Below, in pieces: positions 11,770-17,895 of a stretch of 64,000 nt of DNA. Within the stretch, counting starts at the first letter, position 1; each line of letters opens with the position of its first letter. The notes below the pieces were generated by a model. It was not told the DNA's origin. It saw only the letters and a list, made by a program, of their open reading frames with translations, and searched no databases. Source of the stretch: Branchiostoma floridae. Its lineage: Eukaryota; Chordata; Leptocardii; Amphioxiformes; Branchiostomatidae. The position numbers were made by a program, and so were the translations under genes. The stretch is taken from positions 6,600,196 to 6,664,195 of the forward strand of contig NC_049979.1 in assembly GCF_000003815.2 (NCBI RefSeq), read 5' to 3'.

Positions 11770-12469
11770 TGTTACTTGATTTCAAGTCTCTGTGTATAAG
11801 TGGAATAGGTGCCTCCTCGTGGAGGTATTGCATCCCTCGGGCTATTTGCAGGGCCCAGTCTATAAGAATCTCAGGAGGAATCTTCCTCCCTGCCAGTACT
11901 CTGTTCAACGCTCCTCCCTCGTAGTACTCCATAACTAGGCACAAGTTTGGTGGTTTTAAACAAACTCCTTTCAAAGTCGCCACATTTGGATGATCAAGCA
12001 GCCAGAAAAGTTTCGCTTCTTGTCGAACTTGTTGGACTATAACATTTATATCATCGTCCAGATCTTGTCGTGCCGCCTTCACGGCGACGAGCTCTCCCCT
12101 CCAGGCCCCGCGGTACACCTTCCCGAACCCTCCGCACCCGATCACTTCGTTCAGTTGCAACTCCGAGAAGTCGATGCTACAGGGCACGACGTCTCCGTTG
12201 ACGGCGTCGTTCATGCGGACATAATTGGACGGGAAGATGCCGACCAGACCGTCGATCTTGCCGGTCCACCAGCCGTCGTCTCCGGACACTTTGCTGTCGG
12301 TGGACAACACCTCCACTCGGTCCCCTTGGCGGAGCGTCAGCTCGTCGTCCGCGTTCGCGTCGTAGTCGAAGACGGCAGTCCATAGTGGGGCCTTCGGGTC
12401 ACTGTCACGTTTACGATCGACCCCACGGCGGTTAGTACCCGTCCCGAACCGCGATCTGAACGGATCCAT
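11770..12469 (-). CDS. MLK (MAP3K9/10/11/21-like): Mixed-lineage kinase (MAP3K), first coding exon
   Basis: This encodes the N-terminal 233 residues of an MLK-family Ser/Thr kinase, a MAP3K that activates MKK4/7-JNK signalling. The start at 12469 (MDPFRSRF) is chosen because vertebrate MLKs begin in a similar way; an in-frame ATG at 12511 would add 14 residues. An SH3 domain spans about residues 28-88 (ALYDY-type 'VFDYDAN', 'GDDGWWTG', 'GIFPSNYV'). The kinase domain follows, with glycine loop [12 protein letters not shown] lysine at about 131, the MEYYEGG hinge and catalytic loop HRDLKSSN (Asp 228). The exon stops just after that Asn: splice donor GTAAGT is at 11769-11764, phase 1, where the family continues with Ile. 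The rest of the kinase, leucine zipper and CRIB are outside the window. The exon is CpG-rich compared with its surroundings. It lies head to head with PCNX. Confidence 0.95.
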
Positions 12470-12808
12470 GAAGGAAATAATCTCGGTCGGCGCAGGTCGC
12501 TCGATCACCATTCGGCATCCGGTCCGGCCAGCCCAGCTTGATCCTCACCTCACCAACAAAGCAACTACCAACTGGCCTCTCTGGCCTTCTATCCTGGGAC
12601 CAATAACCATTGAAAGCTACCGATCAGGACCTACTAACTCTCCTAGTCCACGAGCAGGCTCCGGAAATCTGTGTTCAATCCATCAGTCTGGAGGAATTTC
12701 CACTTTTCTGCAGGAGAACCGCCACCAAACGTCTCGGACGACTAGCCGCCATTTTCATTGTACTTTGACCTGCCATAGTGTACAGAGGGTGGGGTGTCCC
12801 GGGTCCTG

Positions 12809-12830
12809 ATTGGTCCAGGGCATCACGTGA
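12809..12830. promoter_or_regulatory. CCAAT box (minus) and TCACGTGA E-box palindrome upstream of MLK
   Basis: ATTGG at 12809-12813 reads CCAAT on the minus strand, about 340 bp upstream of the MLK start. The palindrome TCACGTGA at 12823-12830 matches the core bound by USF/MITF/TFE-type bHLH-zip factors. The spacing suits a proximal MLK promoter. This is motif-level evidence only. Confidence 0.4.
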
Positions 12831-13269
12831 TCTAAACACCCCCAAAAACTTGATATGATTTGATGATGCAGAAATCCTGAAAAATAACAAGTAAACAGTC
12901 ATGTCTTACTGTTGGTTGTGCCGGAGTATATGAACGCATTCTGTCTTTGCAACGAAATAAAGAAGAAAATAACCAAATATGTTTTTCTTACATTCATTTT
13001 GCTAATTTCATCGACATCAATAGCCATATTTTAGGAAAAGTATTTTTCAAGCGTTAGTTGATCTTTGTTAACTAACGTTAAACTAAAGTACTAATAGGTC
13101 CAAAAAGATTTATGTCTGCCCTATCTTTATTCACACAGACTTGTGATTTCTGTTGCCTCACTTATGTTATTGTATTGGTAGATAAGTTGAGTTGACCAAG
13201 TCGGAAGTTACGGCCATGAACATTCAGGGAAAACGCGTGTTGCCTACTCTTTCGTCAACAACTTGAAGT

Positions 13270-14050: not shown

Positions 14051-14325
14051 CGTGTTTTTAGACATTTTTATCAGGCTTTCTATTTTGTGCTGTTCTCTTT
14101 ATGTCTTATTGTTAAAGAAGACACAAAGAAATAGCACAAAATGATTTTTTTAAAAAGCCCGATAAACACCTAAAAACATTTCAAGCCGAAACTCTGCTTG
14201 TAGAGTATCCTTCGCCTGCATTGCTTACTCTCCAAGAAGCTGTTAGGCTCCGGTTGCGTTTTGACGTTTATCAGGCGTTTTTATCGGGCTTTCTATTTTG
14301 TACCGTTTTCTTGATGTCTCATGGC
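14051..14325. repeat. Imperfect foldback repeat with an extra direct copy
   Basis: The left arm (about 14053-14108, containing 'tatcaggctttctatttt') pairs imperfectly with 14117-14177 (containing 'agcacaaaat' and 'aaaagcccgataaacacc'). A further direct copy ('tttatcgggctttctatttt') lies at about 14279-14298. Neighbouring 'ccttcgcctac' and 'ccttcgcctgc' blocks are also repeated. It appears to be a rearranged MITE-like element in the PCNX upstream region. Confidence 0.5.
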
Positions 14326-15352
14326 CTAACGCCATGCATTGCCCTGGTGGCAGGTGGTGTACACAGGCGCCCCCTCGCGAAATTGAAAGCCTTGGGCACA
14401 GAAAGTGCAAGCTTCACAGACCGAAGTCGCGGAATGACCATTAGAATATGGCAAATGCGTAACTAGATAATGACTAGATAACTAGTAGTATCTAACTGTT
14501 ATTAGAAGTTAAATGCGACATATCCGCGCTTTTTCAAATCAGCTTTGAATGAGGACCGCTAGGGTCACCGCGAGTGATCATTTCTAATGGATAGTTTCTG
14601 TTCTCTTCGTGATTTATGAATTACACACACAATGAAAGATCTTCAAGCCTTCGTGGAATGATAAACTGGAAAGTCCGACTTTATTTGGCAACAGCCGAAC
14701 GTTTTCTAGTGACGAGTCAGTCCAGGGATGACCGTGGTATTTCCTTGGTATTACAGTTGAAAGTTTTTGAAAGTTTCTGCATACAAAGTCATTGTTTTTT
14801 CTGCTCGACTTAGTCATTTACTACCTGCAGGTTTTAAACATCTTTAATACGTCACGACTGTTTTCTAGCCTTGTTTACCACTGACTCAGTCGAGAAGAGC
14901 AGTCAGACCATTTGACTCCAGTCAGACCTGAGACATGTGAGAGAGGGAGAGGTCCGTCGTCGTGACGTATGGCACAGGGCAGAAATAGGTGCGTCAAGAT
15001 GATGACGCTTTTCCTGTTTCACAGCCCACGCAGTCCCTGAGTCCTATTCAGCACGGTCATCATCATCTTACTCAGCACGGTAAAACAATCAACACGTCGG
15101 AACAACATAATAAAGGTGTGGGAAACATCCTCTTTGAGAATACCCTATTCTACACGGCCCACTCCCGCATGGAATGCTGGGAAGTAAACTGAGACTGTCC
15201 CGTACGAGGTAACAAAATTCAATATGGCTGCCGTGATGTGGAAAAAAAGACGGTGGACCAGGAAACACTCTCCAGCATGTAGTAACGGGCTGTAGAAACC
15301 GCATTCCCACCTTCCTGAGGACCACAAGGACACAGGGTAGTGTACTGTAGTC

Positions 15353-17895
15353 ATGGGGTCCCAGACACTCGAGATTCTGAGGCAGGGGGTGTGGGCTTCT
15401 TTGACGGGAGGCTGGTTCTTCGACCCGCACCAAGGCATCTTCTGCAACACTTTCCACCTGTACCTGTGGTTGTTTCTTCTCTGTTTCCCCTTCACCCTCT
15501 ACTTGGTGAGTATGTCAATCAGTTATCAAGTCACACGTCAAACAGACCAGTTCTAGCTGTCCAACGGTATTGAGTAGGATATTTGATAACCATATCCCAG
15601 AGGTAAATTATAGCAGACACAGTTTGGTCATATCCACGCCAGATCTAGATCTTTGTTTGCATAGAATGGACTGGCATAAATCGTGCCATCGTTCATTTTC
15701 TGGCGTAACAAATTATACACGAGGATGACTAGCTGTATTTTGATTCGTCAGATATGTGTATCTGTCGACTTTGACCCGAATCTACACCATGCTTTGATGT
15801 ATGTACTGGTAGGGGTCATAATATGTTTTAATCTGCACAATAGCTTTAACCATGGACAAGATTTAAGATGTCATATTACATTGATGTACAATATTTCTAT
15901 GTTGGTATGAAAGTAGATACTTTCTTTAAAAATAGAAGATTATGCTTCAAAGTGTCGAGGCCCCACAAACTGATGAACACATAGAATTCAGTTATGTGTA
16001 CAGTGTAAACACTCTCAATATAATTCTAGAATATTTGATTCAAATATTTGGAGATGCACAATGTAATTTCCAGAATGAAGATAGAAAAGTGCATGGTGAC
16101 CAGGGAAATATATCATCAATATGCATTTATAGGGGATTACTCATGTTGTTAGCATTGAAATGTTACATGACAGACAACATGATTAATAACAACATATCAC
16201 GATGATTATGAATACAATGACATTTTCTCTTAATGCATAAGTACTTAGTAATCACAATGATAGCATCGCATCCAAAATAAAGAATACTGCTCATAAAATC
16301 ATTTTTATTTCTGCATTGAAACTTTGCATACCACATGTCCCTGCGGTACCATACATGTTGCCAAATTTGGGTAGTTCCTGTTTTTACTCCAGTCCAGCAT
16401 CACAAGTGCTAAAAAGTAAAAAATGACTGGTGTGATTGTGTGTGTGGTGGTGTTGTGGCCATTCTATATGATCCTGGTATCGGATCATACCAATAATCTG
16501 TCAAGTCTTCACAAATGGAATATGTATTTGTTTGAGTCACAAATGGGATGAGGCAATACCATGAATACTGTAACTCAATAAGCTGTGCAGTCAGGGTCCT
16601 GGCAGGTCTCTAATCAGACTTGTATCAGCAATCTTGACATTCATTTCTCTAGAGAGGCCAATGGTATCAGACTGCCTCCATCTCATCAATGATAAGTGGG
16701 TTTCTCATCAAATTGTCCTGGTCTTGGCCAACATAGATTGTCCTGTTTTAACTGGCTGCAAAAATGCTTCAGTGTAGTATAGTGTGAGATATTTTTGCAT
16801 GTGAAAGAGACTTGATATGATGGTATATAGGACCATGGCAGGGTGGGGATTATTGATATAAAGCCCCAAGTACAACGAGTCAATGATCCATCTATGTTGC
16901 AACCATTTCTGAATGAGTAATAGAAGTACTTAGTTGGTGCCATAAAAGTAAATTGTGTAATAAATTATTTTCTCTTATCATTTAGCTTTCCCATTTCATT
17001 GGGGGACGTATAGAGATTTATCTTGGTACATGGATTTCGCCTGAAGGGAGGCTGTAGCGGGGTCAAAACTATGATAGTTGATGAAAATATAGTTTGAAAA
17101 GCAAGAATTCTACTTTTGATCAGTATGACAATTTTTTGCTTTGTTGCAATCATTGGTAAACATTTTGTGAATCAAGGTGGAAAACAATTGTCATTTATAA
17201 GATGACATGATTGATGGAAAAAGCTATCGATTTTTATTATATGTTTGATGATCTGACAATGACATAGCTACTGATCAACATTGTAGGTCAGTTTTGTTCA
17301 ATTTCAATAATGATCAATAAATGTTAACTCTACAGACACAATAGAATACTTAGTATTCTAGGTTATGATACAAATTACAATATACTATAGTTGAATGAAT
17401 ACATTGAATAGCTGTGAAAGAACAAAAATAACAAAACTCAAATTTTAAGTGATACCTATTCGATGACTTGAATATAATTCATAAGATGTGTGTTGGCTGT
17501 TTATTCTGAGCAGAGTTAGATTTGATACCAGTAGATCCAGAATAAAAGGTGATGATATATAAACGTTTTTTTCAGCATATTCATCTGGAATGAAGTAGGA
17601 AGGAGTAAACATCGTGAGGTTAAAATCTTTTTCCCTTAATCCTGCAGGCCTTCCCTCCATCTGTGGTGGTATGGACAATATACTGTGGCATTGTGGGGGT
17701 CCTCTTCACAACCATCAAAGTCATCAACTATCGCCTGCACCTGATGTTTGATGGTGGCGAGGCTGTGGCTAAGGCTAAAGGTGGTGAGGGAGGAGCTATT
17801 GAGGACAGCACCAGGGATGCCAACGGTCTGGAAGATGTGGCAGCAGATGCCAGAAGTGTCAGTAGTCACCAAGACCAGCCTGATGCACAGAAAAG
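15353..17895 (+). CDS. PCNX: PCNX exons 1-2: N-terminal membrane segments
   Basis: Exon 1 (15353-15505, 51 codons, phase 0) encodes the conserved start [20 protein letters not shown] and a first hydrophobic segment ([16 protein letters not shown]). Exon 2 (17648-17895) adds a second ([17 protein letters not shown]), then the 'VINYRLH' stretch shared with vertebrate pecanex, and enters the acidic, probably disordered region. Intron 1 (15506-17647, 2.1 kb) contains no repeat or exon that I recognise; its open frames are AT-rich and unconserved. Confidence 0.95.

What the first reader, a model, noticed from the sequence alone, without database searches (positions are those of the whole stretch)
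11770..15505. Head-to-head MLK-PCNX pair: apparent pre-duplication ancestor of three vertebrate gene pairs
Seen: an MLK kinase first exon on minus and pecanex exon 1 on plus, start codons 2.9 kb apart. Known: human MAP3K9-PCNX1 (14q24.2), MAP3K11-PCNX3 (11q13.1) and MAP3K21-PCNX2 (1q42.2) are neighbours, as I recall all divergent. Inference: one ancestral divergent pair was duplicated in the vertebrate genome duplications and kept at least three times. Such retention suggests a shared promoter, nested enhancers or genomic regulatory block constraint.
Basis: partly seen in the sequence, partly recalled or inferred. Interest (0 to 1): 0.75.

Follow-up and report, generated by a model that had tools for sequence, protein, structure and literature searches.

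The report
Ancient kinase–pecanex divergent gene pair
A stress-signalling kinase gene and a pecanex gene sit back to back in this animal genome, the same neighbours that vertebrates still have in three copies; this looks like the single ancestral arrangement, interesting as gene-order history but with no sign yet of a special shared control mechanism.

Summary
Exon 1 of a mixed-lineage kinase (MLK) lies on the minus strand at 11,770–12,469; exon 1 of a pecanex gene lies on the plus strand at 15,353–15,505; 2,883 bp separate the start codons. The MLK call is clear (MAP3K9 4e-60), and the pecanex gene continues to about 45.8 kb with Pecanex_C. Published lists put MLK and PCNX side by side at two vertebrate loci and close together at the third; one paper has PCNXL3 directly upstream of MLK3, and the other orientations are recall. 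One ancestral pair duplicated with the genome is the best reading. The claimed constraint is weaker. A YY1-like motif (consensus recalled, loosened after inspection) precedes each start codon, 2.47 kb apart, so I infer separate promoters; a foldback repeat lies between them. At two loci ordered lists also keep a SIPA1-family gene next to PCNX, so retention may be block-wide. Downstream here are JKAMP and a DZANK1-like gene; no SIPA1 relative appeared in the frames scanned. Outgroups and the rest of this genome could not be examined (genome search did not complete); the species was not established. Verdict: real, probably ancestral, a new member of a known kind.

The parts
11770..12469 (-). MLK (MAP3K9/10/11/21-type) coding exon 1: SH3 and first half of kinase domain
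12470..15352 (.). 2,883-bp interval between start codons; CpG o/e 0.81 against 0.25 in the 11.7 kb left of exon 1
12745..12755 (-). YY1-like motif AAAATGGCGGC, sense to MLK, its 5' end 286 bp upstream of the ATG
   Evidence: promoter role inferred, consensus recalled
15221..15231 (+). YY1-like motif AATATGGCTGC, sense to PCNX, its 5' end 132 bp upstream of the ATG
   Evidence: promoter role inferred, consensus recalled
13985..14335 (.). Foldback, repeat-rich stretch within the interval (inverted arms 13998-14020 / 14185-14207; 55-nt direct repeat at 14055 / 14268, 82%)
   Evidence: z -5.79, 0 of 100 shuffles fold as well
15353..15505 (+). Pecanex coding exon 1 ([12 protein letters not shown]...FTLYL)
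17624..45773 (+). Rest of the pecanex gene: hydrophobic exons 27-33 kb, Pecanex_C exons about 42-44 kb; exon 2 and the last exon assigned by eye

Best explanation
An ordinary divergent pair of two unrelated genes, an MLK-family MAP3K and a pecanex gene (PCNX1-3 type by recalled sequence), whose adjacency predates the vertebrate genome duplications. It was inherited within a larger block and survives at the MAP3K9, MAP3K11 and MAP3K21 loci. Shown: the pair and its layout here; published neighbour lists for the vertebrate loci, with adjacency in two and closeness in the third. Inferred: each gene starts from its own YY1-type promoter about 2.5 kb apart inside one CpG-retaining interval; the fourth MLK copy (MAP3K10, 19q13, recall) lost its PCNX partner; retention is mostly block-level inertia, not a shared core promoter.
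For: Gene identities. Vertebrate neighbours. Block: SIPA1L1 next after PCNX1 in the human list and near it in the chicken list (with RGS6 written between); SIPA1 next after PCNX3 in cattle; SIPA1L2, MAP3K21 and PCNX2 named together in rabbit without positions; KCNK7 next to MAP3K11 in cattle and KCNK1 near MAP3K21 in human. Separate promoters: AANATGGCKGC occurs 3 times on both strands of the window (mean 0.23 in 100 shuffles, largest 2), twice in sense just upstream of these two start codons. CpG o/e 0.81 in the interval, 0.25 to its left, 0.50 over the pecanex gene. Human MAP3K9 and MAP3K21 kinases share 96 of 136 residues, against 92 and 83 with the window protein, as expected if the window gene lies outside the duplication.
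Against: The kinase test is weak: 18 sites group the two human proteins, 14 and 5 support the alternatives, and 2 of the 4 human paralogues were compared over this stretch. No PCNX tree. No paper seen gives the orientation of all three human pairs; one search gives only that PCNXL3 lies upstream of MLK3. No outgroup was examined and no call established the species. The third motif match lies in pecanex coding sequence (45,574), and the K in the motif was allowed after seeing the site. The CpG level of the interval is reached by 50 of 1,017 overlapping windows elsewhere (windows with more than 50 N dropped). Vertebrates lost 84% of blocks from the bilaterian ancestor in one study, so threefold survival by inertia alone is not typical. 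The SIPA1 part of the block at 1q42 is not shown by an ordered list.
Confidence: 0.72

Rival explanations
1. The pair is held together by shared regulation: enhancers of one gene lie in the other or in the interval, or the two are co-expressed, so separation is selected against in each copy.
For: Three retained copies against a background of heavy microsynteny loss in vertebrates; a similar case, PDI/RhoGDI, also kept in three vertebrate copies, has published support for coexpression and common cis-regulatory elements (abstract); the interval is CpG-retaining.
Against: At two loci ordered lists keep a SIPA1-family neighbour as well, so retention need not be specific to the pair; the interval here carries a foldback element; by recall the human gaps range up to about 100 kb; neither gene is a classic developmental target gene (recall). 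Conserved non-coding sequence and expression could not be tested.
Confidence: 0.14
2. A single bidirectional promoter drives both genes.
For: Head-to-head layout; 25% (3,950 of 15,884) of neighbouring amphioxus genes are in bidirectional promoters by CAGE, relevant if the window is amphioxus.
Against: Start codons 2,883 bp apart; the two YY1-like motifs point outwards 2,466 bp apart. Unseen 5' exons could bring the start sites closer.
Confidence: 0.06
3. Convergent adjacency: the two genes came together here independently of vertebrates.
For: No outgroup was tested; the next downstream gene found here is JKAMP, not a SIPA1 relative.
Against: Independent joining in the same layout is improbable, and three vertebrate copies imply a pre-duplication pair in any case (inference).
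Confidence: 0.04

Closest known systems
Vertebrate MAP3K9-PCNX1, MAP3K11-PCNX3 and MAP3K21-PCNX2 loci
   Same: Same two families as neighbours, or close together for MAP3K21-PCNX2
   Different: Vertebrate lists also hold a SIPA1-family gene next to or near PCNX and KCNK or TTC9 on the kinase side; here JKAMP and a DZANK1-like gene follow pecanex, and what lies beyond the kinase is outside the window
PDI/RhoGDI pairs (PMC5722932; abstract and section list seen)
   Same: An ancestral pair kept in three vertebrate copies
   Different: That pair lies in the same orientation and has published evidence of coexpression and protein interaction; none was obtained here
Ancestral bidirectional promoters of amphioxus (PMC6292497; passages seen)
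   Same: Divergent neighbours; YY1 motifs are among the promoter features studied there
   Different: The motifs here lie 2.5 kb apart, so this is probably not one bidirectional promoter

Membership tests
Mixed-lineage kinases MLK1-4 | N-terminal SH3 followed by a MAP3K9-like kinase domain | tested here: met
   (first half of the kinase domain only)
Mixed-lineage kinases MLK1-4 | Second half of the kinase domain, leucine zippers and CRIB motif (recalled features) | not testable with these tools
   not found in the window; the own-genome search did not complete
Pecanex (PCNX) | Pecanex_C domain | tested here: met
   best 4.6e-61
Pecanex PCNX1-3 type rather than PCNX4 | Closer by sequence to PCNX1-3 | not tested
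   judged from recalled human PCNX1 sequence; no PDB relative at E up to 10
Ancestral microsyntenic pair retained in ohnologues | Same genes adjacent at 14q24 and 11q13 (or the syntenic locus) | tested here: met
   published lists and text; orientation not given except PCNXL3 upstream of MLK3
Ancestral microsyntenic pair retained in ohnologues | Same genes adjacent at 1q42 | tested here: inconclusive
   MAP3K21, PCNX2 and KCNK1 named as near the same SNPs; adjacency and orientation are recall
Ancestral microsyntenic pair retained in ohnologues | Gene trees root before the duplications | tested here: inconclusive
   kinase identities 96, 92, 83 of 136; no PCNX comparison
Ancestral microsyntenic pair retained in ohnologues | Present in non-chordate outgroups | not testable with these tools
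   no other animal genome at hand
Bidirectional promoter pair | Closely spaced divergent start sites (about 1 kb or less, working threshold of mine) | tested here: inconclusive
   motifs 2,466 bp apart, start codons 2,883 bp apart; no start-site data
Genomic regulatory block | Conserved non-coding elements spanning target and bystander | not testable with these tools
   no second animal genome available

The most novel reading that the evidence does not exclude
MLK and PCNX are kept side by side in animals by a shared cis-regulatory unit or functional partnership (stress-kinase and pecanex co-regulation), preserved in at least three duplicated copies even after the promoters drifted apart.
Probability: 0.12. 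Interest if true: 0.55.

Novelty: new member of a known kind. Interest (0 to 1): 0.33.

Why it matters
It gives a likely pre-duplication reference point for three vertebrate ohnologue pairs, and makes it testable whether such pairs survive through shared control or simply because whole blocks survive. Pecanex function is poorly known (recall), so a regulatory tie to an MLK kinase would be a lead; the evidence here does not require one.

Tried and rejected
Looked for the rest of the MLK kinase domain left of exon 1: none in three minus frames. Looked for a SIPA1-type gene: no Rap-GAP family listed for the plus frames of 15.0-45.0 and 47.15-62.15 kb or for two of three minus frames of 47.15-62.15 kb. 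Not scanned with Pfam: plus 1-15 kb; minus 11.7-47 kb apart from the MLK exon; 45.0-47.15 kb (which holds the 908-base N run); one minus frame of 47-62 kb; and 62.15-64 kb apart from the ORF at 63,668. No Rfam match at gathering scores and no tRNA by the bacterial-code scan. No PDB relative of pecanex at E up to 10 with two segments. Of my ten paper searches, none listed a title that names MLK-PCNX microsynteny. The listings were cut in four: 25 of 38 papers, 20 of 41, 20 of 48, 12 of 39. I saw passages of ten papers (PMC5464859, PMC11892930, PMC10751923, PMC10976558, PMC6292497, PMC8851819, PMC12523860, PMC7320185, PMC11145851, PMC11939179) and the abstract and section list of PMC5722932. The most relevant catalogue (Irimia 2012) is not held, so a prior listing of this pair cannot be excluded. 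Structure prediction was not used, as fold does not bear on the question.
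Full report
Observation. On the minus strand a 700-base coding exon runs from the ATG at 12,469 to 11,770 and is followed by a GTAAGT donor. It encodes an SH3 domain and the kinase domain up to [11 protein letters not shown] comparison gives MAP3K9 at 4e-60 and MLK4 at 6e-55; next is a chain named EGFR (9p9u, 2.8e-28), then the SH3 domains of MAP3K10 (2.4e-24) and MAP3K11 (1.6e-23), with TAK1 at 2e-23 and MAP3K12 at 3.1e-21. On the plus strand a 51-codon exon, 15,353-15,505, is followed by GTGAGT; its sequence resembles human PCNX1 as I recall it. 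Pecanex_C is found in pieces in all three plus frames of 30-45 kb, best 4.6e-61. Nineteen exon cores that I picked by eye join with compatible phases and no stop into 1,061 residues; 4 of the 18 junctions use a negative-scoring splice site and are provisional. So the pecanex gene looks intact over that stretch, and by eye it ends near 45.8 kb.

What is not in the window. The rest of the kinase gene was not found: three minus frames of 1-11.7 kb give no Pfam match and no DFG[LM]A or GTYAWM motif occurs in any frame. Either intron 1 is longer than 11.7 kb or the gene is incomplete; the own-genome search that might have settled this did not complete (11 calls). No call established the species.

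Surroundings. Left to right: MLK exon 1 (minus), pecanex (plus), JKAMP (minus, 51.3-53.6 kb; PF05571 in four ORFs), then a DZANK1-like gene (plus, from about 57.2 kb). For the last, DZR (28.7 bits, cut-off 27.3) and Zn_Ribbon_1 (25.3, cut-off 25) pass their cut-offs in one ORF, Fn3_assoc is at its cut-off (23), the other zinc-ribbon matches fall below theirs, and the name is recall. A CENP-B-like transposase (DDE_1 3.7e-47) sits in a pecanex intron.

The interval. Between the start codons lie 2,883 bp. CpG o/e is 0.81, against 0.25 in the 11.7 kb to the left and 0.50 across the pecanex gene; MLK exon 1 itself has 1.15. Of 1,017 overlapping windows of equal length elsewhere (those with more than 50 N dropped), 50 reach 0.81, the highest starting at 32,501 and running into the transposase-bearing intron. 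This fits an unmethylated regulatory stretch but is not unique. The pattern AANATGGCKGC occurs three times in the window on both strands, against a mean of 0.23 and a maximum of 2 in 100 shuffles. Two of the three lie in sense just upstream of the two start codons, at 12,755 (minus) and 15,221 (plus); the third is in pecanex coding sequence. PMC6292497 studies YY1 motifs around amphioxus ubiquitous promoters (passages). The consensus is recalled and was loosened at one position after I had seen the pecanex site, so the numbers flatter it. I infer two separate promoters about 2.5 kb apart, not one bidirectional promoter. Between them, 13,985-14,335 holds inverted and direct repeats and folds far better than shuffles (z -5.79, 0 of 100), like a small foldback element, so the spacing is probably not strictly preserved.

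Vertebrate pairs. Papers give: a human 14q24 list ending MED6, TTC9, MAP3K9, PCNX1, SIPA1L1 (PMC10751923, passage); a chicken list with SIPA1L1, RGS6, PCNX1, MAP3K9, TTC9, MED6, which mixes the order of other genes (PMC10976558, passage); human MLK3 with PCNXL3 as the adjacent gene upstream of its ATG at about 3 kb (PMC5464859, passages); cattle KCNK7, MAP3K11, PCNX3, SIPA1, RELA (PMC12523860, passage); human 1q42 KCNK1, MAP3K21 and PCNX2 near three SNPs (PMC11892930, passages); rabbit SIPA1L2, MAP3K21 and PCNX2 among long genes spanning more than one selected region, without positions (PMC11939179, passages). That the lists follow chromosomal order is my assumption. PMC7320185 and PMC11145851 (passages) name MAP3K11 and PCNX3 in one locus or one study but add no order.

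Interpretation. One ancestral pair duplicated with the genome explains three copies far better than three joinings. The MLK kinase comparison agrees weakly: human MAP3K9 and MAP3K21 share 96 of 136 residues, the window protein shares 92 and 83; 18 sites favour the human grouping, 14 and 5 the others. The constraint claim does not follow. A SIPA1-family gene stands next to PCNX in the ordered lists of two loci and is named with the pair at the third, and KCNK genes accompany two of them, so more than the pair seems to have been kept and pair-specific glue is not needed. Heavy loss of old microsynteny in vertebrates (84% of bilaterian-ancestor blocks, PMC8851819, passages) keeps such glue possible. 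The PDI/RhoGDI case (PMC5722932, abstract) shows that threefold retention with functional ties exists and that this type of history is already described.

Novelty. My ten paper searches (four with cut listings) showed no title on this pair, but the main catalogue of ancient microsynteny (Irimia 2012) is not held, so the pair may already be listed there. I rate it a new member of a known kind, of modest interest.

Noticed in passing
window 34764-36571 (+): CENP-B-like transposase (DDE_1 3.7e-47, CENP-B_N, HTH_Tnp_Tc5) with a 412-codon open frame inside a pecanex intron, in the sense orientation; the top-ranked 500-bp windows by CpG o/e start just before it, at 33.3-33.7 kb.
   Followed up: partly
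window 51282-53627 (-): JKAMP (JNK1-associated membrane protein, PF05571), convergent with pecanex; a second JNK-pathway gene about 40 kb from MLK. By recall human JKAMP lies at 14q23, on the same arm as MAP3K9-PCNX1.
   Followed up: partly
window 57200-62180 (+): DZANK1-like gene (Fn3_assoc and double zinc ribbons), running towards the right end; name from recall.
   Followed up: no
window 13985-14335: Foldback repeat-like element between the two putative promoters; no further copy found in the window by blastn at E up to 0.01.
   Followed up: partly
window 24388-24741 (-) and 55873-56220 (+): ORFs sharing phrases such as SLGTIRKVV and [20 protein letters not shown] suggest a dispersed repeat family; a more diverged relative may lie near 62.4 kb.
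   Followed up: no
window 15353-45773: No solved structure related to pecanex by sequence was found in the PDB copy at E up to 10 with two segments of 400 and 351 residues.
   Followed up: partly
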